This document shows, piece after piece, positions 14,001-57,436 of a stretch of 64,000 nucleotides of DNA. The notes under the pieces were generated by a model that ran no database searches, had not been told where the DNA came from, and was given only the letters and a program-made list of their open reading frames with translations. This DNA comes from Ianthella basta (Eukaryota > Porifera > Demospongiae > Verongiida > Ianthellidae). A program made the translations under genes and the position numbers. Every line of letters begins with the position of its first letter. Position 1 is the first letter of the stretch. The stretch is taken from positions 3,650,813 through 3,714,812 of the forward strand of contig OZ025880.1 in assembly GCA_964019415.1 (NCBI GenBank). The letters are read 5' to 3'.

Positions 14001-17000
14001 TGAAATCACAAAGAGGAACACTATAGTACTTGCTGCTCCAGGTTTGCTTTGAGCATCGCATTTTTTGTGTATGAAATGCATTGATTTACATATGCCCTAT
14101 TGCAGTGTCAGGATTACCCTCATGCTATATAATGTACCCTACCTGAAGTTACAATGGCAGCAGGGATCCATGCCTTTTGTGCAGGCTATCATTGGTAGAG
14201 CATCATGTTGTTTCAAATTTAGCGCTGTCATGTGATGTAATGTTGATCTTACTGTACATCATCTGAGGGTCCTGAATTTGAACTGTGCAATGCCTAGCTA
14301 CCAACATGGTCTGAAGATTATTGTGCTGATCACGAAACCTTCAGCCAATTGGATTTGGCGCTATGTTTGTATGCACTGTTGTTGTTGTTACTGAACTCCA
14401 ATACACTTTAATCAGTGAGAAACTAGTGCTGTTGTTGTTACTGGCTCAGTGAGTGCAGAGCTGTGGAATATTAGCCACGTGCCTGTGCACATGTGTACAC
14501 TTCATATGAAAGTGACTCTGTTGCCACCTTTCCTGCAATCTCTGTCACTGTCCATGTGCTTTAAGTGTTTGCAGTACGTATGCATTTGCTGGTGAGTTGA
14601 GGGCACAGTTTTTATACTTAGGTATTTTACATTGACGTTAACTGCAAAGAATGTGTGTATTCAAGGAAAATGCTGTGTGTACATGCCTCTTGACAATGCA
14701 GCTACTTGCCTAGCCTGTAGCCAGGCTATACGAATACGCTTAACATAGCTGATGAGAGGGGTAGTACTGTGTCTGTCTCTGTTCAAACTCTCCTCTTGGT
14801 CAAATGATATATTTGGGCTTTCACATGAATGTTCATATGTATGTCACCACAATTTGAAGTTGAAGGTCCTGTATTCTGTGGATTCAATGTGATTTTGAAG
14901 ATAGTAGTGTGTATGACCATGGATAGTAAGTACAACATTGTCAGCAATGAGGGACCCACAAGGCTGTCACTTCCTGTGATTACTTGTTGTCATGTACTGA
15001 TTGCTGATCAACTCGATGGCAGCCTAATGGTGTCACTGCTGTCATTTGCACCTCGTAGGTGAGCCTCCTTCCTCTGTTGGCAATCTAACAGTGGTCTGGG
15101 AAGATAGCAAATTTCTTATCAGTTGGGAGGAGCCAGTTGTCACCAATGGTGGCATCACAAATTACATTGTGAAGAGCACTGTGCTGAGCTCTGCCGGGAA
15201 CATGATAACTTCCTTGAACTACACAACTAATGTTAGTGACACAAGCAGATTACTTTTGGTGTGACTGTTCACTATGCTGACTCTTATGTTCATGCAAGCT
15301 CATGTGCAGTGTACGTATGTAGGTTCTGTATTGATACCAGCAGTGTAGGACTGATGATTGTAATAGTAATTTGAATGTAGAGTAGACCTTTGTGCACACC
15401 TGCCATGCAGGTTTTACGTACTATGCCTTCTTCCTGTCAGGAAACCTTCTGTTTTGACCTAAGCAGCCTGGACTCAGGATTTGATATTAACTTAGCTACT
15501 AATGTATCTGTTCAGGTAGCTGCCAGTAATCGATTTCAAACAAGTGTGTTCAGCAACGTAACATACCAATATGCAGGTAAGTGCTATCTTGCTTGTACTT
15601 GTGTCAGCCCATGATAGCTGTAGTACGTACGTACAGCTTACTTATCATAAATGGAATCATTCAATTGGGGAGGGTGTGAAGCATGTGTGCTTTCTTGAAA
15701 GGTCCATGCTTGCCAGATTGCATTTGACTGGCTGTGTGCATCTGCCAGACCAGAGTTGCTTACGCATGGAATTAATGTATTCACTTTCTTGCAGGTGCAC
15801 CGATGATGAAACCTTTACTAGTGGATGGCAGTATCATTGCAGTTGTGGTGATTTGCATATTTATAGTTGTACTTCTGCTGGTAGTTGTGGTACTGATAGT
15901 GCTCTTGAAGTGCAAAGGAAAGAGAAAGAGCTGGCCCAGAGTACGTACATGTGCATACCTTACATATGTGCTACATAAGTGCATGCACGCTTGTTTGCTG
16001 GCCTCATGTTTTTCCAGACACTGATACTTATGGACTATTACAAATCATCTGTACACTGACACAGCCTTTCGCCTCACACCTCTCTGCCTGAGAATAGTAA
16101 CTCAATTGGCCCACTGCAATCCAGCCAAAACACAAAACACTAAGATGAATCCGTGAATGTTTGGCTTGAAATGAATTCATGCAAATCATCTCCACAAATT
16201 CTTCTGCTGTTCAGCACTGCATTATACCATGTCCAAACTTACTACCATGTCATGTATGAATATATGTACATTTGTATCTCATATATAGTTCTCTGTTCAC
16301 TGGCATCGTGGCACACAACAAGACATTGATACAAATTCAGCCTTACGCCAGATGAGAGCCAATCATTGGAGCTTCTCAGAACTGCAAGCAAAGTTGCCTC
16401 CTGATATTCAAGACAGATGGAATATCTCATTCAGCAGCTTTGTTCCTGAGAGCTTTCGTTTGCTTGGGTCTGGCAATTTCTCTACTGTCTACCTTTGCCG
16501 GGTGAAAGCACCCATTACAACACCCACCAATCTAGCTCAGTTTCAAACTTATGCAGATCAGGCAGTTGCAGTGAAGCTATTGAGGGGTGAGATAGATTTA
16601 TTTATGACAGCGCCTAGGAATGAGCTTTGAGTAAAACTGCTACTTGGTGCCTATTTATGTTGCCTGTCCATATAGCCCCCTCCCCATGTTTGTGTTGCAA
16701 TTTGTTCTACAGTATCACTGCATGTTATAAATTGTATCTATTTATGTGTAAGATTCTGCAACAGTTTGTATATATGCCAAGAACTACTTCATGTTGTGCT
16801 ACAGTAGTAGGGTGGATTGCAAATTTGCTCTTTGTACAGTGTAATGCTGGTATAGGTAAGTAATGTTGTACAGAAGCATTATGCTATCAGTGAATGTGCT
16901 GCAGTTTTTGCAAAAGACAGAGCATCTGAACATAAGAGCCCAGTATCATCATAGTTTGCTGTTAATGCAGAAGGCCATTGCCTCAAGCAATTGAGAGGCT

Positions 17001-19810
17001 AGCACAGTGCAAACCTGGTCAGAATTGGGAATTGTGCAAGCTAAGGTTTGCAAACTGACAGTAATTTTGCAAAGCTTAGAGTGCACAAATGGCTATGGAG
17101 TACTGAGGTGAACTACCTCATTCAGTGCATTCATGTCTTGGACTTGCATCCTGTGGTGTAACATTGTGTGTAATGGTCATGTAGAGAAATGACTATAACG
17201 AGCAAGTACGATGTTGTTGGCCATGTTCTATAGCCCTGAGATTTACTTGGCTCTACTTGTTTCCTATCCATTGTTTATGGCACTATGACAATGGTGTTCT
17301 TACCTGATTAATGAATTTCTTTTATTTAATCAGGGACTGCAAGTGAGCAAGAAATTGCCTCTTTCTTCAATGAGGCAGATATTATGAAGAAGTTGTCTTC
17401 ACAGAGCTGCAACTATATCGTGCAGCTTGTGGGTCTTCAGGTGGAGCAAGCACCAGTCATGATTGCAATGGAGCTGGTCCCATGTGGCAATCTTTTAGAC
17501 ATCCTAAAGAATAGCCGCATTTCAGTATGTTAAAGTTTGTTTACTGCATTTAGTGATCACAAGCTCATGGTACCGTTTGCCTGCATGTAGGAAGAATCAG
17601 ATGCTGAAGTATTTGTAGATCAAACTCCTCGCTCACAGGGGTCCTTCAAGAAGAAGATGGTGTGTACTTTTGTGTAGATGACTGTTGTAATACATATGTC
17701 TATTCCCTTAATTTTGATGAGCTCATCTTGCATTGTTATGTGCCTAATATGATCCTATCAGCTGCAAAAGACAGACACTCAGCTGACTCTAACAGAGTTC
17801 CAGCTAGAAAGAAGTGGAAGTATTGACTCTTATGTTCAGCTGCGCCATTTAAGCTTTTCAAAAGCAGGCTCTCCTGACCCCCCAGAGGACACAAAGATCA
17901 TTTTGAAGCCCAGCCAACTGCTTAAATTTGCTCTGCAAGTGTCAAGAGGGATGGTCAGTGACCATACATACTTATGTTTGATTTGCCTACGAGTTGTTGC
18001 TTTTTATACTAGCGCTGTGCATCTGTTCTCCCTCCCCTTAGGAATTTCTGATTTCCTGTAGAGTGCTTCATCGTGATTTAGCATGTCGGAACTTACTTCT
18101 TGGTAGTAATGGCATAGTCAAAATCTCAGACTTTGGTCTGGCATGCTACTTCGAAGAAGAAAACAATGTAGTTTCTGACCTTCCATCTGAGAATAAACCT
18201 CTACGGTGGATGGCTCCTGAAGCTTTTGCACACAACACATACAGTGAAGCATCAGATGTGTAAGTAGAACTGTTGTGTATACTATATGTCTTTGAAGAAG
18301 GTTCACTATGGCTTATGCTAACACTCCCATTCTGTACGTAGGTGGTCATTTGGAATTACTGTATGGGAAATGTTTAGCAAAGGTATGCTTCTTGCTCTGG
18401 GACTTGCTGAATAACATGCAAGCTACTACTGTTGTGTGTGCTGACTGAGTGGCAGCCAACCTTCACAGTTTGTAGAACATGCATGTGGCAGTTATAATTC
18501 TGAATGGTCACTTGTTTTACAATGAAATCTTTGATGATATGATGCCAGAGCCACAGTCCTTCATTGTTGTCATATTCTGTAGTGTCATCAGTGTTGAGGA
18601 CTTAAAAATCTGCCAAATATATAATGGGGTACTTGCTGTGGGTTGGTTGCATGGATGTTCTGATCATTCCTGGGGTCATTGTCTTCTAGACTTTTGCATC
18701 TTTCAGACTCTGCCTTGAAGGCTAACAGTCAATACACATTATTCCCGCTCCATCACAACTGCACCTTGTGCATTTGCTATTGCTCTTGCACTGTAAACAA
18801 GTCGGCATCTTTCAGTCTCTGCTAGCATGTTTTGACAGGGGAGAGGCACTAGAGTAGCTTCAAGATTTGTCCTTGATAGGAATCTACATGGCTAGTCACT
18901 GAATGCCAGTTTTCTTTCACTGACCAACATTCATTTGTGTTATTGTATTTGTGTATCTTTCCTAACAGATTATTGCTGTGCTGACTTCTCACTTCACTTT
19001 TGCGACATGATATAGTTTGTTAATTGTCTACTACAGGTGTTAGTTGAGGAGTTGCCTCTTATTCCTTAGGTGTGTTCCCTTATGCCAGTATGTCAGATGA
19101 GGAGGTCTTGTCTTTTGTTGTCGGAGGTAGTACAATGGAGAAGCCAACAGACTGTGACCCTGAGCTGTGAGTTGGACATTGGACTATTGTTATGCTTGCT
19201 CCATACAGCTGCTGCTCCGTAAGAGTTGCCTATGTCAGTAGCATGCACATGCAATTACGTGCTATCAGTAGGACATGCAATACTCTATCTTTCTGTAAAA
19301 GCTGCTGTTACTTTTGTAATTGCATGAAATGTGCTGCCCTGCACCATACCACTTATAACAAAGTTGTCAGTGAACCAATATATAGACTATTATTTGCAAG
19401 CACACACACACACACACACACATTGCATGGGGAAGCCACTTATGTTCATGTGAATGTAAGTGTTTATGCATGTGACATGAATATATAGCTGAATATGCAT
19501 GTTATGTGCTGTCTTAGAGGCACATGGAATACTATCAATTTGCATAGTGTGGCTGAATATAGTTGAAGCTAGGTATTGTAACTCTCCATACTCACATGTG
19601 CTCAAAGTGCAAGGTTTAAATGTCCATTAAAGATTGACACCTGATGTACCTTGCAGTTATTCCATCATGCTCAAGTGCTGGAGACTGGATTCAAAGGAGC
19701 GTCCCAGTTTCACTACTCTGATAAAGCTGTTGGATCAGTTCATCTACCAGCTCTACCCATACATGATGATGGAAATAGAAGAGTGTGCGGATGAAGATGA
19801 TGGTGAATAA
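5056..19810 (+). CDS. receptor tyrosine kinase with fibronectin III-like ectodomain and intact catalytic core
   Basis: This is a single-pass receptor that should signal from the plasma membrane. The start at 5056 opens a signal peptide (SLFFLLLVCVTGSYS). Phase-compatible exons: 5056-5205, 5337-5402, 5751-5990, 8064-8144, 8234-8314, 9262-9374, 9648-9722, 11731-11809, 12832-13028, 13098-13202, 13957-14041, 15059-15258, 15411-15576, 15795-15940, 16289-16586, 17334-17524, 17591-17659, 17762-17953, 18042-18259, 18342-18382, about 19070-19166, and 19657-19810 (TAA). At least one exon between 5990 and 8064 is missing from my model, because the phases do not join. The ectodomain has Asn-x-Ser/Thr sites and FN3-like strands, clearest in the 15059 exon (NLTVVWEDSKFLISWEEP). 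The TM helix is in 15795-15940 and is followed by KCKGKRK. The kinase has LGSGNFSTV, VAVK, HRDLACRN, DFGLA, RWMAPEA and SDVWSFG, with an insert of about 85 residues after NLLDIL. The Tyr-rich activation loop of many RTKs is absent. The ligand is unknown. Confidence 0.88.
5363..5477 (+). repeat. copy B of the duplicated exon-intron segment
   Basis: This covers the 3' part of receptor exon 2 (encoding RCCGDTGSNESSS), its donor GTAAGT and the first part of the intron. It is the partner of 4176-4294. Here the reading frame is open and phase-compatible with both neighbouring exons, so this is the functional copy. Confidence 0.6.
10085..10189 (+). repeat. dispersed repeat, copy 1 (in a receptor kinase intron)
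   Basis: The stretch beginning near GCCATGGTA with two GATTCTAAATC boxes and ending in AAATCCCAT plus TACAT recurs at 33096-33192 with scattered substitutions. It is intronic here and in the V-ATPase gene there. No terminal repeats or coding capacity were seen. Confidence 0.6.
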
Positions 19811-39900: not shown

Positions 39901-42255
39901 AGACTCCTCATCCAACAGCCCTGAAAGCAACAATACCAATACAAAGTACCTCCACAAAAATTTACATTGAAGTATGCATTGTTGTGAAGCAGGCAGTACT
40001 AGACTTAACAGCAAGCCAGTGCAGTATGTACAATTAACCTGAACCTTTAGCCTCTTCAGTAGTAGCTCCTGTGCCTTGGTAGGTGAATGACTCAGCCTGC
40101 ACAGACAGGGAATAACAATGCAACATAATGCACTCGCAACAATTAGTTATGCTTCTAGATAATCCTGTTATTCAAACAGCCATTTTCTATGAGGCAAACA
40201 AATCAGAACTTACAGCTTCAAAAAAACCCTGAGCCTTCCTGATAATGTGCCTCAATTCCACCAAGTCAAGCATGTTCCTCTTCAGAGTTTCAGTGTTGGT
40301 GTTGATCTCCTTCACTTCACTCTCAAGCTCCTCAAAGCGTGACTCCAGGTCAATCATATCTTGAGGATCAGGAGCATCTACAAACCCAACCGGTGCCGGC
40401 TGCAGACCCACACGTTCCAATTCATTGGACAGAAAACCTACCAGAACAAGCAGTAGTTTGGTAAATCACAATTGCTACATAGCTACACTTTCCCTCTTCC
40501 ATCAATACCATATAATAATTATGCTTTAACTTTCGCAGTTTGCGAGTTTTCGTGTTTATACTTTCGCAGTTGCAGTCTCAAGTAGGAAAAATAAAGCCTT
40601 GTGTAAGTTTTTGCGGGGTGAAACTTTCACGGATGGTTGCTGGTCTGCGAAAACCGTGAAAGTTTAAGTTACAGCGTATATGATACATAACAATATCCAA
40701 GTCTTGCCAGTACAGCCATTCTAACCACTGCCTTGATGTGAAAAGTGGCACTATATGTGAGCTAAATGTACAATACAGTACGGTGCATGGAAAAGGTAAC
40801 GATAATTCCGTTTCCTGATTCACGTTTTTCGGTGAAACAAGTTCATCTTGTGAATTTTTGGCAGTTTAGCGCTGCTCGTCACGACGCATTACCCGGTAAA
40901 CAGTTACCGTTTAATGGTTAACGGTTACCGCCTAACAGTTAACGGTTCGCACCTATATACCTAGTTCGTAACCTTACGGAGTTCAGTCTTGTGCCAGTGA
41001 AGAAGCTATTCCCCCAGAGACCATGAGCGCTAGCAACGCAATCATTGTGAGGTACGAGAACAACGGTTCAGCCAGATAAGATGGCAAGGAGTACCAGGAG
41101 TCACTGTCCAAGATCCGCAGGGATGAGAGTGCGACAGGAAGCCTGACGACTGGTGAGGCCATCACAATTAAGACGAAATCACAAGTGTGGAAGGCCATTG
41201 TTGTAAACCTGCATCCTAACCTCCATCCACCTCAGAGGCCTTCTGCAGCTACATAGGACTTGGGTGATTCTCCCGTAGGATATACCTTCCGCTCGAAATA
41301 AAGTTGAACGATTCGCTGTTTGCAATAAAGTGACAAGACCATCCTCACTTCTTTTCGCTATCACTGAACACTGTGGCCGAACGACCATGGTGCTTATATA
41401 CATCGCTGTCGCATTAAACAGTAACCGTTAACTGGTAACCGTCACACACTAACAGTTAACGCTTTTCCCTTCGTCGTCGCCGTTACTGTTTAACGGTGAA
41501 AATATCGCCTGTTTTCGGTTAACGTTATCTTTTCCATGCACCGTACTGTACCATGTGGACACATTCATGTCATACTTGTACAACATTGTGGCTTGAATCT
41601 GTAAGGCTACTTTGTACATCATCATCATATCAATGATACCAAGTACTTACGCAGTTTCCTCTCCATTTCATCACATCTCCTCACTTCATTGACAAACTTT
41701 CTTTGGAATGCACTGACATCTGGATTCAACTGAAGGAGGTTGCACAAATGTACGGAAGAAGTGTACCACTCAAACTATGTAGCATAATATTATAGTGCAA
41801 ACACAGTGCATCACTTGACAATTAATTACTATTCAGACATTGCATAGGTGGTGCTGTGCACTGCCTATTAATTACTTTGACTCTGTTATTAGTCATCACA
41901 TCATTACAATATATGTGTATGTTGAATACATGTTATATACTATGAATGAACATTAACTATCCATTAGAACATGTGCTACAAGTTGGGGAGGTGGCCACAA
42001 GACTTTCATTAAAAGTAATGCCAAATCAATGCCTCGGGAAGCATTTATGTAATAGCACCTTGTCACTTGAACAATATCAATGTATAACATACTGATGCTG
42101 CCCTCCCCCCCGGAATGTACATACAAAACTCAACTTACGTCACAAAAATGAACCATCCCAAGTTCCCCCAACTCCCGCACACACGCATAGGCAGAATCAC
42201 TCTGTAGAAACAGCTGGCAGAGGGTCATCTCGCGAGACCGAAACAACGACCCCAT
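27910..42255 (-). CDS. ATP6V0A: V-type proton ATPase 116 kDa subunit a
   Basis: This is the stator and proton half-channel subunit of the V0 sector, which acidifies lysosomes and other organelles. All 22 exons join in phase: 42139-42255, 41651-41729, 40214-40437, 40039-40096, 39866-39920, 39574-39700, 38050-38132, 37071-37164, 36591-36803, 36025-36175, 35752-35891, 33894-34042, 32781-32895, 32117-32281, 29277-29360, 29067-29186, 28880-28984, 28635-28811, 28480-28591, 28263-28397, 28101-28170, 27910-28003 (TAA 27910-27912). The start encodes [19 protein letters not shown]. Family blocks follow: [55 protein letters not shown] and [21 protein letters not shown] holds the channel arginine, and [12 protein letters not shown] precedes the C-terminus. 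The exon at 28635 encodes an acidic, Gly/His-rich cytosolic loop. I cannot tell which vertebrate paralogue it matches. Confidence 0.96.
29925..31065. repeat. CCA/TGG minisatellite cluster with inverted halves (V-ATPase intron)
   Basis: The left half (to about 30450) is rich in ACCACCACC and copies of a unit containing CCACCAGTACAAGTTACA. The right half (from about 30530) carries the reverse complement (GTAACTTGTACTGGTGGTG) and GGTGGTGG runs. Neighbouring words, such as a CTAGGAAAACACCACCAG stretch, also recur inverted. The cluster lies between the V-ATPase exons at 29360 and 32117 and is spliced out. Confidence 0.85.
31177..31330 (+). repeat. 66-bp tandem repeat, about 2.3 copies
   Basis: Units start at 31177, 31243 and 31309 with GCATGCACCAGT. 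The first two are virtually identical and the third is partial and slightly diverged. It is intronic in the V-ATPase gene. Confidence 0.85.
33096..33192 (+). repeat. dispersed repeat, copy 2 (V-ATPase intron)
   Basis: This is the partner of 10085-10189: GCCATGGTAACGTGCATC, then two GATTCTAAATC boxes and AAATCCCAT. Similarity is high but imperfect, consistent with an old dispersed repeat family. Confidence 0.6.
34440..34804. mobile_element. 365-bp foldback MITE with about 73-bp arms (V-ATPase intron)
   Basis: The left arm starts AATCACGTAGCAGAAATAAA and ends GTTACAATACTGAAG. The right arm is its reverse complement with a few substitutions, starting CTTCAGTATTGTAAC and ending ACGTGATT. The central part has no coding potential. 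No clear target-site duplication was seen. Confidence 0.82.
37242..37347 (+). repeat. about 105-bp repeat, copy 1 (V-ATPase intron)
   Basis: The segment from GACCTCATATCTC through GGTCTCAAACACA recurs at 38833-38942 with few differences, in the same orientation. Both copies are intronic in the V-ATPase gene. Confidence 0.85.
38833..38942 (+). repeat. about 105-bp repeat, copy 2 (V-ATPase intron)
   Basis: Partner of 37242-37347. The shared core includes GTGGGTAACTCAGTCCATCA and GAGTGGTGCATGAGCTGTCT. Differences are a small insertion near the start and scattered substitutions. Confidence 0.85.
40518..40680. mobile_element. small imperfect inverted-repeat element (V-ATPase intron)
   Basis: The ends carry TTTAACTTTCGCAGTTTGCG and, inverted, CGAAAACCGTGAAAGTTTAA. 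The wording resembles the ends of the element at 46730-47224, so the two may be related MITEs. Boundaries are approximate. Confidence 0.45.
40776..41548. mobile_element. 773-bp TA-flanked TIR element with GTTAAC subterminal repeats
   Basis: The left end CAGTACGGTGCATGGAAAAG and the right end CTTTTCCATGCACCGTACTG are perfect inverted copies for at least 20 bp, flanked by TA on both sides (40774-40775, 41549-41550). Inside each end lie clusters of TTAACGGTTACC-like and AACAGTTAACGG-like units. The plus strand from about 41000 to 41250 is nearly open, interrupted once by TAA, and reads like a decayed coding piece ([20 protein letters not shown] then [20 protein letters not shown]). I do not recognise that protein. 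Confidence 0.85.
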
Positions 42256-42347
42256 CTTGTTCTCTTCTTCACAACCACGTGACAGTGGAAGGAACTGACT
42301 ATCACGTGAGTCACGTGCGGGGAGGCGTGATAGGATGTTCCTGCAAA
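42256..42347. promoter_or_regulatory. 92-bp bidirectional promoter with three CACGTG boxes
   Basis: This gap separates the start codons of the V-ATPase a gene (42255, minus) and LTO1 (42348, plus). It contains CACGTG at 42276-42281, 42303-42308 and 42312-42317, two of them in TCACGTG context. In other animals, CLEAR elements (GTCACGTGAC-type) recruit MiT/TFE factors to V-ATPase and lysosomal genes. Binding here is inference. Confidence 0.7.
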
Positions 42348-45300
42348 ATGGCGGACCCATTTGGAGACATAGTAATGGCTAATGAAAGGTTGGTTGCTTC
42401 GCTCAAGACAAGAATAACGATTAGTTTATAACACGAAACTTTGAGGATACGATGAACTTGTGTACAGGGAAGCAACGCATAGACTGGACCTTGTAACTGG
42501 TCTCTGCTGGCCATGCTGCCCGTGCATAGCTAGCTACTTGTTTCGGCTGAAATGACGTTCATTATTCATAAAGCATGTTATATATGCAAAGATAATGTTG
42601 GTGTGACCTTGGACACAGGCACAATACATGGGACAGAACAGCAATGCTGAGGTAGACAGTGACTTGCAAGTTGTGTACCATAAAAGAAGTATTGTTCTAT
42701 GGATTTACTTTAAAGCGAAATTTGAACTAAAACAAAAACAATGAAAAGCTGAATTTGTATAGTTTGAAGATTATGTTCTATAGTTTTAGCATGCATAGGG
42801 GTTGGCACTGTTACTGATAATGGTGCATGAACAGAAGAGAAGGTTGCTACCATTCCAAGCTGCTCCTTGCTAGAAAACCAATTTGGAGCAGGTAATCCAG
42901 CATGGTCAGGGATGCTTTGCCACTGCAATTGCTTCTCTTAGGGAATAGTATGGGACAGGTGGTATGGGGTGTCCCAGGGCAACAATTTCAATGGTGGCAT
43001 ACTTGGCATTCAGTCCTCGTCTGTGCAGTTCATTAGTGATTACTAGGTATGGTCTATTCTGCTGTTGCCTTCTTGCTTGTCTCATTGCTTCTTTGGAGTT
43101 GCCAGTGACTGTGAGTTTAGCAGGGTGATACTTGGATGAATGATGATAGTCTTAGGGGGATGGCAGAGGGGGTGCTGTTGGGCTTGTATGTTATGTAGGT
43201 CTGTATACTTCTGGACATTTGAAAGTGCCTTCTCTAGTGACCTGACCAGTCTCAGTAGGTCAGAGTTGTGTCCATGTCCATCATCCCTTGTTCCAGGACA
43301 TCTGGACATTGTATATGTCCAATTGTGGCCTGTGGTCTTGAGCAGAGCTTGCAGTAGGATGAGTCCTTGATTGTACAATCTAGTGTTTACCTTTCGACCT
43401 GGTTCTTGTATATCTGCAAATTTATTGGTTTGGAAGGGTGCCCAGTCTGCTCTGAGCATGTAGTATAACTGGCATGATGGCAAGCCATCCATGAAGCAAT
43501 TCATGATTCATCTCTAGTAGTGATATTTAGCCTCAAAAAGCTCAGTGATGTCCAGAAACATATTCTGAACGCAGAGTGAGGAGAGTTCTGGTTCCAACAG
43601 TTCAGTGAGGTTGCAGAGATTCCTGGTCCCTCTCTTGAGAGCTGCCAGTGATGCTGGTGCACTAGATCAGGAGGTATGCAGGCAGTTGGTTGCTTCAGTT
43701 GGGATTTCCTGTCTTTTCAGGAATGTTGGGCTGTTGATCAGGCAATCAATCAATCATATGATCATGTGTCCCTAATAGAGACTGGTTGACTTGCTTTGCA
43801 ATGATCATTCTAAGGATCAGTGCAAAGATGTTGGATGGGAAGTGAAAGATGATAGTGGAGCTACTGAATAGGATGGGAAGTGTTGTTATAGAAATTGTCG
43901 AACACAGTATTAATGATGTTTCTCTGTCTGATTCTGTTGGTTGCTCTAACTGTGGCTTCATCATGTGTCCAAGGACACAGCTACATTAAACTGCTGAGAG
44001 GATAAGGTGGTTGTAACTTGGTGGATGCAGCATTACATACTCTCTGTACTATCCGATAACGGTCCATCTAGAGTATGTGTTCAAACCATCTGCCGATCAG
44101 GTGGTTAACTTCAATTTTGGTTGGGTCAGATGAGGCCTAGATAAAGCAAATGTAGTTCACTTTTGCTTTTGTGTAGCAGAAGGAGGTGGAGGGAACTGCA
44201 AGAACAGAAAGACAGTACCATATGGCTTGGGTAGGATTACTGGGGAGCTTCAGCTTCAGATGTTTAGCAAGGTCCTGATAGTTTGCAGCAGCTTCTCGAG
44301 GAGAGTGGAAGAAATGGGTTGGTAGTAGTTTAGGGTGAGAGGTAGTGTGAGACTATCCCCATTTCATTTCTCCTCTGATGGGTCTCTCATCCATGTTCTT
44401 AAGGCTATTTCCACTTTCTGTTGGAGATGTTTGGAGGCTTCTCTCTTGGTCAGTGAGTAATACACTGTGACAACTTGGCCCAGGAATTTAGTGGGGTGAT
44501 TTAAGATGCTCCTGGGTGATATGCATACATAGGAGTGGAAACGAGCTGCTAGGTCTGGGCAAGTGTCATGGAAGCGCATTTGGTTGAGGAAAAGTCCAAG
44601 GGTCCTGCTGCTGTTTCAATGGACTGGATTGCATGCTGATGGTCTATGTAACAGAGTTGATGATGGTAAGGTCCATAGGCGTTGGAACACAGTATTTTTG
44701 CTCATTACGCTCGCAACATAGGACATTTCATTCAAACTTTGCAGGCATCAAAATACATCAATACATGAGGGGAAATTTTGTACCATTTTCTACTGCGTCA
44801 GTGCAAAACTTATATAAAAATGGTACAAAATCACACTAAGCAAGGTTACCAGGAAATGACCCCTTCCTGTCATTGACAGCAATAAAGGCCTTCACTATCT
44901 CTAAAAGATCCAGTTTATCAGTGGCTGGAACATACTAGAATGTAGAAGGGTCTTCAACCGGCGTAGAGTAGAGAAAGTTCTCTCTGCAGTTGCTCTGGTA
45001 ACGGATACAAGGCAAACACAGGAATACAAGGCGGAGAAGAGCAAAAACTTCACTGAAGTTCAACAGTTCAACAAGGGTTTCATAAATCTGCAGGGAATTG
45101 TCCACCCATCCAGTCACTACGTAAAGCTGCTCATTGCAACCAATATCAGTGGCTTCATCTGCTGATCACTGTGCTCGGCTCTGCAGGTTCATGTTCTCAG
45201 CTGCACTGATCGTCAGAGGTATCGTCTGTCATTTCTAAGTTGATTGCTGAGCAGGAGTCTTCAGGTTCATGCCCACAGCTGTGGGATAAAGATTGCTTGA

Positions 45301-52261: not shown

Positions 52262-54427
52262 CTACAGCTCATACAGAGAAGCTCCTTCACTTTTGATCAC
52301 ATTGTTGGCTTTCATTGACAGGAGTTCAAATAGTTCTTTGAACAATGGTCGGTCAACTGGATTTGGCCGCTGGCAGCTGGCAAACACTTTGGAGTATTCT
52401 TTGGGACAATTAGCTGGCCTGTAGGACAGTACAAGTGAAAATGGCTCTGTTGGAATAGCTACATGGTCGAGTGCTGACTGAGTGTTGCTACGCATAACAA
52501 AGTTGAATGCCCAGCACTGCACAGCACAAATTTGGATTGTCAGTGAACATAGATCACATAGTATAGTCCGGTGTGATGAGACATATGTAAGGGCCATGAC
52601 ACTCACAGTGACAGTTGCAGTGTTCCTCGCAGAGCATTCTGCAATACATCATTAGTGGACAGCTCGGTATATGGCACAGACCCATGTGTGGTCAACTCCC
52701 AGAGGAGAACACCAAACGACCTGAGTGAGAAGTGAACATTCAGCTAACAGACATTTACACACTATCCACTTGCAGTGACCATTTTGATGTCACCTGCCAT
52801 ATCCACACTTAGCCAAAAGTGAAATGTACAGGCACATTGTTGAAGGGTATACACAGGTCTCTAACATAAGCATACTATATTTGCTGGCATGTTTAGTTAT
52901 GAAACTATCTTGATTCAGTGATGGTACATACAGTGCACAAGGTATGATATATGTTGTACCAGCTTCACATATATACATACCAGACATCAGACTTTGTGGT
53001 GCTCTTGCCATACACCAATGCCTCTGGAGCCTTCCACCTCATCAGTCCTTCACTATCCACTGTCTTCTTGGGCGGTGCTTCCTCAATAGCTTCTTTCACA
53101 AGAGGAGTGGCAGGAGGAGGCCCATTGTCAGTTACCATAGTGAAGTACATTGACTCTTCCTCCACCATTGCAGCTGATTCCCCAATTGCTGCTGATGAGA
53201 ATCCAGTCAACTTCACCATCAAATTACGGCCAACTACGTATGTATGCCAAAGTGAAAAGTGTAGTGTTAACTGTTTGCTGTGGTGTGGCAGCATTAGGCA
53301 CTATGTACATACATATAGTCAATAACATTGTGGAACAGAAGAGAATAGGAACAGTGGACAGCGGTGTCGGAACATGTTTTGGACTGTGGGGCCTGGGCTG
53401 CTTGGCAGCAGAACCAGTCAGGCCCATATTCACTATAAATATTTTGGTCAGGAAATATTGGATGTGGGGGGAGGGGGGGGGGGAGGGGGGCTACACCCCC
53501 TAGCCCCCCTGTTCCACCGCATTGGCATAGGAACACATATGTTACATGATGCATTACACACACAAGTTCCCTGTCTAGGTGTGAAACTAACACACCACAT
53601 ATATGTACGTACAAATGTTTATGGAGTGTGGTTGATAACTTCCTGCAGCACACACAAAGATACACATGTATTGAAGAGTGAGCAATCGCCAAGCATGTAC
53701 ATATGTCAGAGGGACTGCTAAAGGATAGAGAACCCAAACCCAGGAATAATATGACTATGATATAGATGAATACCTACCACTTACGCAGGTGGTGGGGTAG
53801 GTTAGCTGATATATAGTTCCATGTACTGCCTACTCACCCAGACAATTTTCAGCTGCAACACCATTGTGGACAACGTCTTTCTCTGCCAAGTACTGAAGAG
53901 CACTTGAGATCTGGAGGTTATACGTATGTACATAGTACCATACTTGGCATACATTACTATCCATCTACTGTATGTACATACATATTACAACTTCATCTTG
54001 TTACATGTCCTTGCACAGCTTACATAAAAAACTCACATCTGATGCAAAGTTGTAGAAGTCGCTGTAATCCAAAACAGCTTCTCGATACTTTGTTGGACTA
54101 TTAGTTAGAGGGATCAAGTCAAGTTAGGTGTGTATTCACAAAGTGGACTTCCCTGTGCTCATGCAGGGCATATCATGCATGGTAGGAGGGTGGAAAGTGA
54201 TTCTCCACTCACCAATTGACCCTGACAAATTGCAGCAAGTTGCCATAATCCATTAGCTCAAGAACCATCATTGTTAGTCCAACTTTGTCTGTGCAAACTC
54301 CTAATCCATAAAATTAGAACAAAGGAAGTCACAACACATAATCGTATGCAGTGAAATAGGAGCATTTCAGTGTTAATGAATGTACATCCCAACACTACTG
54401 CATGTATGTTGAGTACGTACCTTCATG

Positions 54428-54488
<61 letters not shown>

Positions 54489-57436
54489 ACGTCAGGGCAC
54501 ACTTACCAAGAAGACTGGCAATGTTCTGATGATGGAAAGTCTTCCTCAGCTGAAGTTCTTGGTCAAAGTTATGTTGCGGTACTTTTTCACTGCTGCACAG
54601 TGCCTTTACTATCACTGGCATTACACCTTCCACATTGGCAATGTCCTAAGAGGATAGAATGTGATTTGCCACTGTCAGGTTGTTATTACATAGGAGCCAA
54701 ATGTTACGGGCATGAAGGGTCAGTCTACAGAACTTCATCTGCAGGTAAATCCTAAGTCTCTGCACCTTGCAATGGCAGTGTTATTCTATAATCAAATAGC
54801 ACAAGAACTGCAACACTGTTCCTGCACCCAAGGTGGACCTTATCCACTGTAACTTGCCCTGGTGGTGCTTTTCATGCAACTAGCAACTCATAAACTTATG
54901 ATAAGACCATGTTGCTATATATGCAGCACCAATTAGCAACAGCACAGTCACTTGGCAAAGCCTGAGAAACGGGTTTGAGTAGTCCAATGTACATTCTTCA
55001 TCATTCTCTTTTGCTTATGCAGTTTTTGTTTCCTACCAGCTAGTCCTACTTGTATATGTCATGTGCCAAACTTCACTATGATTGTGAAGGGATATATACC
55101 TTTGCCTCCATCAGCATGATCTTTGTGTACTGCCCCTGACTGATGTCTTTCAGGTAGGTCAGGTTACTTCGTGGGTACATCCATGCCTGCACAGTGCAAA
55201 CAATTGATCACATCATGACATCACTGAAATTGTGGGTTGATAGTGCCAATCCAAGGAAGAGGTCAGGGCACAAATGTAAGAATTCAATGTTATAGTGGAA
55301 ATTGTTAGGCATGCTGAATGATCAATTACTAATCTTCTTGCGTGGACAATCCAGCACACCAGTAAATCACTTTCAATCAATCATTAATTGCTCCATTTTA
55401 TGCAATGAAAGATTGATTGAAAGTGATTTACTGGTGTGCTACGTAGACTGCCCAAAGAAGAAGATTAGTAATTCAGGAATTTGATGGTCTGTTAGCACAT
55501 TTACTAGAGTAGTAATCATTCTGTCTGCCATTTAGAGTGTTGCATACAGTAATTCCACATGACAGCTCATCAACAAAGTTTGACATTACATGCATAACAT
55601 AGCCACTTCAGTTTAAGGAAAGGCTGATAGCATACTTCCACCATGTGTTACATACACACAGCACAAACCTCATCCTTCTTGGAACGAATGGTATTGAACT
55701 GCACAAAGTTCCACTCCATGGATGTGATCCCATACACTGGACGCATGATGTTTATCTCATCATAGGTCTCCTCCTCTTCCTCCTCCTCCACAGGGAGTGG
55801 CAGCCGATGATGAAACAAAGGGTTGCCAGAAACTTTAAGATCTGTATATCGCTGCTAATCAGTGAGAGTGTGGGAGGAAGACAAGAAGGTATTAAACAAA
55901 TGCACGGATGGACCAACTTCCACTAGTTGCTTTAAAACCTACTCTGGAATTATCTTCTGATCTTTCTTCTCGATTGAGGTAAGTACTGCAAGAAAGAGGA
56001 AAACCAACAACATTGCCTTATACAGAAATGAACCCTGCCATGGTATCATGCCAATATACATATCATTGCTGCATGTAACACAATGATATCAGTGAACAAC
56101 ATATGGCTGCTTAGTGAGTGGTACTAGCTGCATGTTAAAGAGGGTATGAGCCCTTACATGACTTACAGATTGCTGTCATTTGAGCGCTTGTTCCTCCTCC
56201 ACAGCACAAACAGCACCAAGACTAGGGTCGTCACCAGGGCGATCATTAGCAGTAAGACAAACACAGGCACACCAGCAGCGACTCCAATGATGAGGTCTTG
56301 GCTTAAAGGTGAGGATGTGGTTGGTGGCGGCGGTGAAGCAGTTCGGGGTTGTGTTGGAGCAGTTGGGGGAGGCGGGGGAGGAGGCAGGACTGTATCAAGT
56401 GTGGAACAATGGGGATACATAGTGAATGACTATACAGAGTCGTACAGGGAAGTCAACACAATAAGTAAAAACAACATTTTCGATCTGCATAAATTCATGA
56501 CACCATTCACTAACTGCAAGTGATCCTTATTAGAGTGGGATCATACACTGAAATGTAGCTTAAAGTCTGCCCAGGGATCGGTAGAACGGTTAGCAGCACC
56601 TACACATGTGGAGAGATGAAGGAAACAAGTAATTCACAACGATCTTTGTTGTTCACATCCAAAGACATAATGATTACCAGAGTTTAATACAATTGCAAAA
56701 TTACACCAGTAAGAATTAATGAGTTGGACTAGTGAGCAATGATAGCACCACTGTTCTAATAACTAGTGTCTATTTGCTCCTCTCGAAATGCATATGACCA
56801 TAGGGTTGAGCATCGATGGTATGACATGGACATTGGTCTACTCACTCCAAATATAACCCCTTGAGGTCGCTGCACCACTGTTACATTAATCTCCATTGTC
56901 ACTTCTTCTTCTTCGGTGTCAGTCTCAAGCTCCGTCACAAAAGACGAGTTCTTCGTTTGATGCACCTCCAGAACTAGTTCATCCTCGTAGCCATGAACAT
57001 AAAGGTGAACTATGCTGATACCTATGTCGCCCTCTGCCGAGGGCTCCGTGAGAGCGCACGGCTCAATGTACGCCAGCATCCGGAACGGAACAAAGACGAT
57101 GCTAGATAAACCCGCTTCCACCTCAAATTCGCATTCGAAGTCTAAGCACGATGTTTGGAACACGACGCACTGCTTTCCCTTTGTCACGTTCCCACTCGCG
57201 ACGAGTAAATCCACTCCTTTGCAAACCCGCGAGGCCTCCTCTGCAGAAAAGAAAGACCAAGCGAAGACCATGTGCGTGCAGTAAGTTTTGTGGCTCCCGC
57301 CACTGCACAAGGCGAGAAGTTATAATATGCCGCTTCAAGGCAGCTTACCATCAAACACTAGCTGACCAGCAGACTGTCCGATTAGGTAGATGAGCGTCGA
57401 AGCGACGAGAAACACTGAACAAGGTCCTTGTTTCAT
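52262..57436 (-). CDS. receptor tyrosine pseudokinase
   Basis: The start at 57436 gives a signal peptide (CSVFLVASTLIYLIGQSAG). Exons: 57349-57436, 56846-57240 (ectodomain), an uncertain exon near 56570-56600, 56167-56389 (Pro-rich stalk, TM, WRRNKR stop-transfer), 55943-55985, 55669-55851, 55100-55186, 54507-54645, 54213-54300, 54037-54097, 53838-53910, 52981-53233, 52617-52720 and 52262-52418 (TAG). Kinase-like blocks: WMYPRSNL, a weak Gly loop (ISQGQYTKI), VIVKAL with the ATP-site lysine, ELQLRKTFHHQNIASLLG, HNGVAAENCL in place of HRDLAARNCL, VKLTGFS in place of VKI-x-DFG, RWKAPEA, SDVWSFGVLLWEL and CQRPNPVDRP. Both catalytic aspartates are gone while the fold residues remain, so it probably acts without phosphotransfer, as a partner or scaffold. 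The activation region has a long insert rich in Glu and Pro. Confidence 0.88.
54430..54485. repeat. (TG)n microsatellite inside a receptor kinase intron
   Basis: About 27 uninterrupted TG units lie in the minus-strand intron that starts at 54506, roughly 20 nt downstream of the splice donor, where the transcript reads (CA)n. Such tracts are length-unstable. Confidence 0.95.
55325..55472. mobile_element. 148-bp foldback MITE (receptor kinase intron)
   Basis: Arms of about 55-60 bp: the left runs ATTACTAATCTTCTT through CAGCACACCAGTAAATCACT to TTTCAATCAATC, and the right is its reverse complement ending AAGAAGATTAGTAAT. The loop is about 25 bp. No coding potential. Confidence 0.88.

What the first reader, a model, noticed from the sequence alone, without database searches (positions are those of the whole stretch)
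52981..53910. Receptor tyrosine kinase that has lost both catalytic aspartates
Seen: the catalytic loop reads HNGVAAENCL where active kinases have HRDLAARNCL, and the metal-binding motif reads VKLTGFS where they have VKI-x-DFG. The exons flanking these blocks are in phase, and the ATP-site lysine (VIVK), APE and WSFG remain. Known: loss of HRD Asp and DFG Asp abolishes phosphotransfer, as in other RTK-family pseudokinases. Inference: this is a maintained receptor pseudokinase, not a decaying gene, because every kinase-exon junction is intact and no stop occurs.
Basis: partly seen in the sequence, partly recalled or inferred. Interest (0 to 1): 0.8.

Follow-up and report, generated by a model that had tools for sequence, protein, structure and literature searches.

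The report
Sponge receptor with a dead kinase
A sponge genome carries an intact gene for a cell-surface receptor whose kinase-like domain has lost the residues needed for catalysis, so if the protein signals it probably does so by binding partners; such dead receptors are a known kind, but this one differs from the human ones in its outer domain and in which residues it has lost.

Summary
On the minus strand, 57436 to 52262, a 13-exon, 648-residue gene can be read with GT-AG introns and fitting phases throughout: signal-peptide-like start, one unclassified extracellular exon, transmembrane helix, tyrosine-rich juxtamembrane segment, tyrosine-kinase-like domain (Pfam E 3e-55). HRD reads HNG and DFG reads GFS; two of three loop glycines and the VAIK alanine are also changed, while the VAIK lysine, helix-C Glu, catalytic-loop Asn and APE stay. 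No second copy and no HRD/DFG-restoring exon was found. Losses concentrate in the active site (11 of 18 invariant columns lost, against 3 of 26 elsewhere; Fisher p 0.0009), and the open frame does not fit long neutral decay. The genome is very probably a sponge's. The domain falls in a weakly supported group with PTK7, DDR, MuSK, TRK and ROR; a clade with RYK is rejected. Most likely it is a maintained receptor pseudokinase. Losing both aspartates has precedent: human EphA10 and EphB6 (PMC13259870). No orthologues, expression data or structure were obtained, so present selection and mechanism remain inferred.

The parts
57349..57436 (-). exon 1: ATG and signal-peptide-like start (MKQGPCSVFLVASTLIYLIGQSAGQLVFD)
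   Evidence: in-frame stop upstream of the ATG; hydropathy peak from residue 6
56846..57240 (-). exon 2: extracellular domain of about 131 residues, five Cys in it, sequons at 47, 127 and 148; no significant Pfam or PDB relative
56167..56429 (-). exon 3: Pro/Thr-rich stalk and transmembrane helix (best 19-mer starts at residue 219)
   Evidence: the acceptor of this exon is the least certain junction
55943..55985 (-). exon 4: juxtamembrane, TYLNRE (pYxN-like)
   Evidence: motif name recalled
55669..55854 (-). exon 5: juxtamembrane with RQRYTDL, acidic run then TYDEI, PVYGI
   Evidence: motif reading recalled
55100..55186 (-). exon 6: start of kinase-like domain, degraded glycine loop ISQGQYTKI
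54507..54645 (-). exon 7: beta-3 VIVK (Lys kept, Ala replaced by Ile) and helix-C Glu
54213..54300 (-). exon 8: hinge region (MMVLELMDYGNLLQFVR)
54037..54097 (-). exon 9
53838..53910 (-). exon 10: catalytic loop HNGVAAENCL in place of HRDLAARNCL
52981..53233 (-). exon 11: GFS in place of DFG, activation loop about 30 residues longer than usual, RWKAPEAL, SDV
52607..52720 (-). exon 12: WSFGVLLWELTTHG, C-lobe
52262..52418 (-). exon 13: end of C-lobe (NPVDRP), tail ending SLYEL, stop

Best explanation
It is a protein-coding, apparently single-copy sponge receptor pseudokinase. Shown by sequence: a single-pass membrane receptor architecture with a tyrosine-kinase-like domain whose catalytic Asp, metal-binding Asp, HRD Arg, two loop glycines and VAIK Ala are replaced. 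From established kinase biochemistry it should not transfer phosphate. Inferred: Ile in the VAIK Ala place (PTK7 has Leu there, RYK Phe, STYK1 Ile) and the missing DFG Asp leave little or no Mg-ATP binding, while the kept Lys-Glu pair helps hold the fold. The receptor then works as a binding partner: an extracellular signal or clustering brings it to an active kinase (an active receptor or a Src-type enzyme), its juxtamembrane tyrosines (YLN, YTDL, YDEI, YGI) are phosphorylated in trans, and SH2 proteins dock there.
For: Gene model with all phases fitting; Pfam kinase 3.1e-55; motif table against 30 kinases; active-site columns lost 11 of 18 against 3 of 26 others, Fisher p 0.00086, or 0.0031 if one doubtfully aligned Pro is counted as lost; neutral simulation and at least 17 changes in 54 nt; codon preference 0.21 per codon in frame against 0.05 in the other two sense frames; no second copy among the scored candidates and no other HRD or DFG match in window 50-60 kb. 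Mechanism by analogy: Table 2 and the passage on EphB6 juxtamembrane trans-phosphorylation in PMC13259870. Src-type kinases with intact motifs lie in the same genome (L001, L002, L003, L005).
Against: No transcript, orthologue, dN/dS, structure or binding data. The end branch is very long (2.4 changes per column), which fits relaxed constraint as well as a new role. Three otherwise near-invariant positions outside the active-site class are also changed (Met to Leu, Met to Phe, Trp to Gln). The reading frame is not the best-scoring frame in 3 of 13 exons. The activation-loop insert and the exon 2/3 junction are unproved. Docking motifs are short and recalled.
Confidence: 0.66

Rival explanations
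1. It is the sponge orthologue of PTK7/CCK4, diverged and with its immunoglobulin ectodomain lost.
For: AU test does not reject a clade with human PTK7 (p 0.39, 0.41, 0.40); VIVK resembles PTK7 VLVK; window gene + L024 + PTK7 form one side of a branch in the best trees (72/70; 81/69), not significant.
Against: No Ig domain match: the ectodomain is one exon without a significant Pfam match. Another gene of this genome, L024 (C17:5557674), is the row that pairs with human PTK7 (88/17, 90/89, 88/13; unstarred) and has PTK7-like HKD and a changed DFG (NFG). PTK7 keeps the HKD Asp and has ALG; here both are gone.
Confidence: 0.15
2. A recently disabled gene at the start of decay (a young pseudogene).
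For: No orthologue or transcript was available to exclude it; at 0.03 substitutions per site 11.5% of simulated neutral copies still have no stop.
Against: At least 17 nucleotide changes in 18 active-site codons and an open insert of about 30 residues are too many for such a short time if neutral; other invariant columns are kept 23 of 26.
Confidence: 0.12
3. The domain is still catalytic by an unusual mechanism, or the dead exons are one of two alternatives.
For: Lys, helix-C Glu and catalytic-loop Asn are kept.
Against: Both aspartates are Gly; a motif scan of window 50-60 kb found no HRD or DFG.
Confidence: 0.04

Closest known systems
EphA10 and EphB6 (human receptor tyrosine pseudokinases)
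   Same: Both catalytic aspartates replaced (HRG/GFG and HRS/RLG; Table 2 of PMC13259870); EphB6 is phosphorylated on its juxtamembrane sites by EphB4.
   Different: They lack the VAIK Lys, which is kept here; their kinase-dead forms trace back to jawed vertebrates (PMC6993872); no Eph domain matched here.
PTK7 / CCK4
   Same: Same broad, weakly supported group of kinase domains; bulky residue in the VAIK Ala place (VLVK, here VIVK).
   Different: Seven Ig domains, HKD kept, ALG; here no Ig match, HNG and GFS. The genome has a better PTK7 candidate, L024.
RYK
   Same: Receptor pseudokinase with a bulky residue in VAIK (AFVK) and degraded DFG (DNA).
   Different: No WIF match here; tree rejects a clade with RYK (AU p 0.002); RYK keeps HKD.
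STYK1/NOK
   Same: VILK in beta-3, GLG in the DFG place, short ectodomain.
   Different: STYK1 keeps HKD and has lost helix-C Glu; here the reverse. Not tested in the tree.

Membership tests
Receptor tyrosine pseudokinases (functional class) | Tyrosine-kinase-like domain by sequence | tested here: met
   Pfam PK_Tyr_Ser-Thr 3.1e-55; 30 of 44 near-invariant columns kept
Receptor tyrosine pseudokinases (functional class) | Loss of essential catalytic residues | tested here: met
   HRD to HNG, DFG to GFS
Receptor tyrosine pseudokinases (functional class) | Signal peptide, ectodomain, one transmembrane helix | tested here: met
   by hydropathy and gene model only, no topology program
Receptor tyrosine pseudokinases (functional class) | No phosphotransfer, signalling function kept | not testable with these tools
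   needs biochemistry and RNA/protein data
PTK7/CCK4 | Seven Ig-like extracellular domains | tested here: not met
   no Ig match in the protein or ectodomain
PTK7/CCK4 | Kinase domain groups with PTK7 | tested here: inconclusive
   AU p 0.39-0.41; with L024 and PTK7 72/70 and 81/69
RYK | WIF ectodomain | tested here: not met
   no WIF match in the protein or ectodomain; one search found none in the genome, but its control was silent too
RYK | Kinase domain groups with RYK | tested here: not met
   AU p 0.002, 0.03 with a RYK row that had 5 mis-typed residues
ROR | Kringle domain and ROR-type kinase | tested here: not met
   no Kringle in the protein; AU p 0.03; L004 of the same genome has a Kringle
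Eph pseudokinases (EphA10, EphB6) | Ephrin-binding ectodomain, SAM | tested here: not met
   no such Pfam match; a kinase clade with EPHB2 is not rejected, AU p 0.15

The most novel reading that the evidence does not exclude
Sponges have their own receptor pseudokinase family, with a new ectodomain, that lost both aspartates independently of the vertebrate Eph pseudokinases and of PTK7/RYK, so non-catalytic receptor signalling by dead tyrosine kinases arose repeatedly, also on the sponge branch.
Probability: 0.45. Interest if true: 0.55.

Novelty: new member of a known kind. Interest (0 to 1): 0.42.

Why it matters
Human receptor pseudokinases matter in Wnt signalling and cancer, and how often and why kinase activity is dropped is an open question. 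A sponge receptor with an intact gene and a dismantled active site, in a genome that also holds a PTK7-like and a ROR-like gene, gives an early-branching case in which keeping the fold and losing catalysis can be separated. The tree does not prove an independent origin, and loss of both aspartates is already known in man.

Tried and rejected
Rejected: alternative exons restoring HRD/DFG (motif scan of window 50-60 kb found no HRD or DFG; the profile search of all window frames found, besides this gene and the kinase at 16-20 kb, only weak matches); a retained in-frame mini-intron explaining the activation-loop insert (32 GT...AG pairs with length a multiple of three were printed, none with a convincing acceptor by eye); a close paralogue or second haplotype (only the window gene itself at high identity among the scored candidates). 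Not settled: a sister relation to the other receptor kinase of the window (AU p 0.217). WIF ectodomain: no match (the control of 41 was silent). Silicatein as a sponge marker failed (15 matches of 34-67% identity; of six loci translated, L047 has a cathepsin-type active site, L042, L043 and L045 a changed one, L044 and L046 do not cover it); the mitochondrial contig was used instead.

Led nowhere: orthologues in viral contigs and genome contigs (2 and 22 pattern matches, none confirmed); Ig domains near L024 (one search listed 150 matches, its limit, none near that gene, three forward frames of L041: only the kinase, so its ectodomain stays unknown); structure prediction of the ectodomain (machine busy at 14 calls); PMC6997932 is not held.

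Weak points of my own tests: the split into 18 active-site and 26 other columns was named after seeing the columns; one of the 23 kept (a Pro in the insert) is doubtfully aligned, and without it Fisher p is 0.0031. Of the 25 'active' references 9 are own-genome and 16 human; PTK7, RYK, ROR2, ERBB3 and L024 were left out before the count. The simulation counts substitutions only, no indels.

Full report
What is there. The gene lies on the minus strand. Reading GT-AG introns by eye and script gives 13 exons, 57436 to 52262, an open frame of 648 codons, and a fitting phase at every junction. The in-frame stop before the ATG and the hydrophobic start fit a signal peptide. Exon 2 codes nearly all of the ectodomain before the stalk, about 131 residues with five cysteines; it has no significant Pfam relative (best DUF1030, E 0.087, below its cut-off) and no PDB relative (best E 0.88). 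A Pro/Thr-rich stalk and a strong transmembrane helix follow, then a juxtamembrane part with tyrosines at 251, 266, 294 and 304, one after a run of glutamates (TYDEI), then the kinase-like domain. The exon 2/3 junction is the least certain.

The active site. In an alignment with 20 human and 10 own-genome tyrosine kinases the window protein has S-G-T where others mostly have the three loop glycines, Ile for the VAIK Ala, Asn-Gly for the Arg-Asp of HRD, Glu for the catalytic-loop Arg before the Asn, and Gly-Phe-Ser for DFG. It keeps the VAIK Lys, helix-C Glu, the His and Asn of the catalytic loop, APE, the D-W-G of DVWSFG and the Arg of DRP. Its activation loop is 53 residues long against 17-25 in the 30 others. 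Of the 10 own-genome kinases in that table, 9 have HRD and DFG intact; L024 has HKD and NFG. That loss of the HRD and DFG aspartates abolishes phosphotransfer is textbook knowledge.

Is it maintained? No relative close enough for dN/dS could be found: the genome search lists only this copy at high identity and the two collections searched gave none. Indirect tests: of 44 columns that are at least 92% one residue in 25 active kinases, 30 are kept. Among 18 that I class as active-site, 7 are kept; among 26 others, 23 (Fisher p 0.00086; 0.0031 if one doubtful Pro counts as lost). The 11 lost active-site residues need at least 17 nucleotide changes in the 54 nt of that class; a simulation of neutral substitution on the CDS gives no stop in 11.5% of runs at 0.03 substitutions per site, 2.2% at 0.05, 0.15% at 0.1, and in none of 2000 at 0.28. 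Codon preference, trained on 5506 codons of own-genome kinases against this gene's introns, is 0.21 per codon in frame, 0.05 in the other two sense frames and 0.01-0.10 in the three antisense frames; the reading frame is best in 10 of 13 exons. So the gene did not drift neutrally while the active site was dismantled. A decay that began very recently cannot be excluded.

Kinship. With 31 rows (window, 10 own, 20 human) the window domain falls in a group with MuSK, TRKC, ROR2, DDR2, PTK7 and six own kinases (91/90, not starred), on a very long branch (2.44). A clade with RYK is rejected (AU p 0.002), also with TRKC (0.01) and ROR2 (0.03); not rejected are PTK7 (0.40), L024 (0.40), DDR2 (0.29), EGFR+ERBB3 (0.15) and EPHB2 (0.15). 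An earlier run with a partly mis-typed RYK row gave the same verdicts for the five of these that it tested (PTK7, RYK, L024, TRKC, ROR2). The best trees join L024 with human PTK7 (88/17, 90/89, 88/13; none starred); the window gene lies just outside that pair (72/70, 81/69), in an open group with that pair and the DDR2-like rows (80/84). I therefore do not file it under PTK7, although kinship is open. The name IRKL for a group that includes CCK4 is from PMC8662651 (passages and one section).

The organism. The 209 Mb genome includes a 21,233-base contig with COX1 whose frame has ten TGA codons, 20 tRNA genes called in the 20,000 bases read, and an open frame that reads by eye as ATP synthase subunit c, atp9. 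TGA as Trp, many tRNA genes and mitochondrial atp9 together point to a sponge; that rule is recalled, not tested by a call. The species is unknown to me.

Compared with what is known. PMC13259870 (passages with Tables 1 and 2) lists eight human receptor tyrosine pseudokinases. EphA10 (HRG, GFG) and EphB6 (HRS, RLG) also lack both aspartates, so that part of the finding is not unique. The window pattern (SxGxxT, VIVK, E, HNGxxxxN, GFS) equals none of the eight. PMC6993872 (abstract, passages and the section on kinase-dead Ephs) reports the three motifs present in the Amphimedon Eph, traces the human kinase-dead Ephs back to jawed vertebrates, and mentions invertebrate Eph isoforms with altered kinase activity. 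The window gene shows no Eph domain, so I take its loss as separate from theirs (inference). In seven paper searches I saw no listed title or abstract about a sponge receptor pseudokinase; the lists were capped (20 of 60 and 15 of 109), subscription papers are mostly not held, and the kinome survey of the Amphimedon genome was not read.

How it probably works. Inferred: no catalysis and little nucleotide binding, because the VAIK Ala is a bulky Ile, as PTK7 (Leu), RYK (Phe) and STYK1 (Ile) have bulky residues there by Table 2; the review gives the sites of PTK7 and RYK as occluded (for PTK7 it names other side chains), and that of STYK1 as unknown. The receptor would pair with an active kinase, be phosphorylated on its juxtamembrane tyrosines in trans, as reported for EphB6, and recruit SH2 proteins. 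Nothing here tests that.

Verdict. A sound, correctly read observation: a probably maintained receptor pseudokinase of a sponge. New member of a known kind, of moderate interest.

Noticed in passing
L024 / L041 (G000:C17:5557674-5558546): A second likely receptor pseudokinase of this genome, kinase domain in one open frame: HKD in the catalytic loop, NFG for DFG, TAK for AIK; pairs with human PTK7 in the trees (unstarred), 38% identity. Its ectodomain was not resolved.
   Followed up: partly
window 15776-19807, plus strand: Exons of another tyrosine kinase, apparently a receptor (hydrophobic stretch near 15840, by eye), with HRD and DFG in the exon at 18042-18260, about 32 kb from the pseudokinase and on the other strand.
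   Followed up: partly
L004 (G000:C14:258482-259297): ROR-like receptor: Kringle domain (Pfam 1.4e-17) and tyrosine kinase in one open frame, with HRD and DFG intact, unlike the HKD and DLG of human ROR2.
   Followed up: partly
G000:C96 (L048-L050): Mitochondrial contig of 21,233 bases with TGA read as Trp, 20 tRNA genes called in 20,000 bases and a frame that reads as mitochondrial atp9.
   Followed up: partly
L042, L043, L045 (G000:C6:3129861-3135963): Three neighbouring cathepsin L-like open frames in which the active-site stretch (QCGSCWAF in L047) reads otherwise (e.g. EIGDSVIF, EIGDSIIL): possibly dead proteases.
   Followed up: no
window about 54430-54485: Long (GT)n/(CA)n run in the intron next to exon 7; the region has many TACATAC-type simple repeats (by eye).
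   Followed up: no
window 42130-42378, minus strand: Open frame [41 protein letters not shown] looks like the start of the V-ATPase a subunit (recalled, not searched).
   Followed up: no
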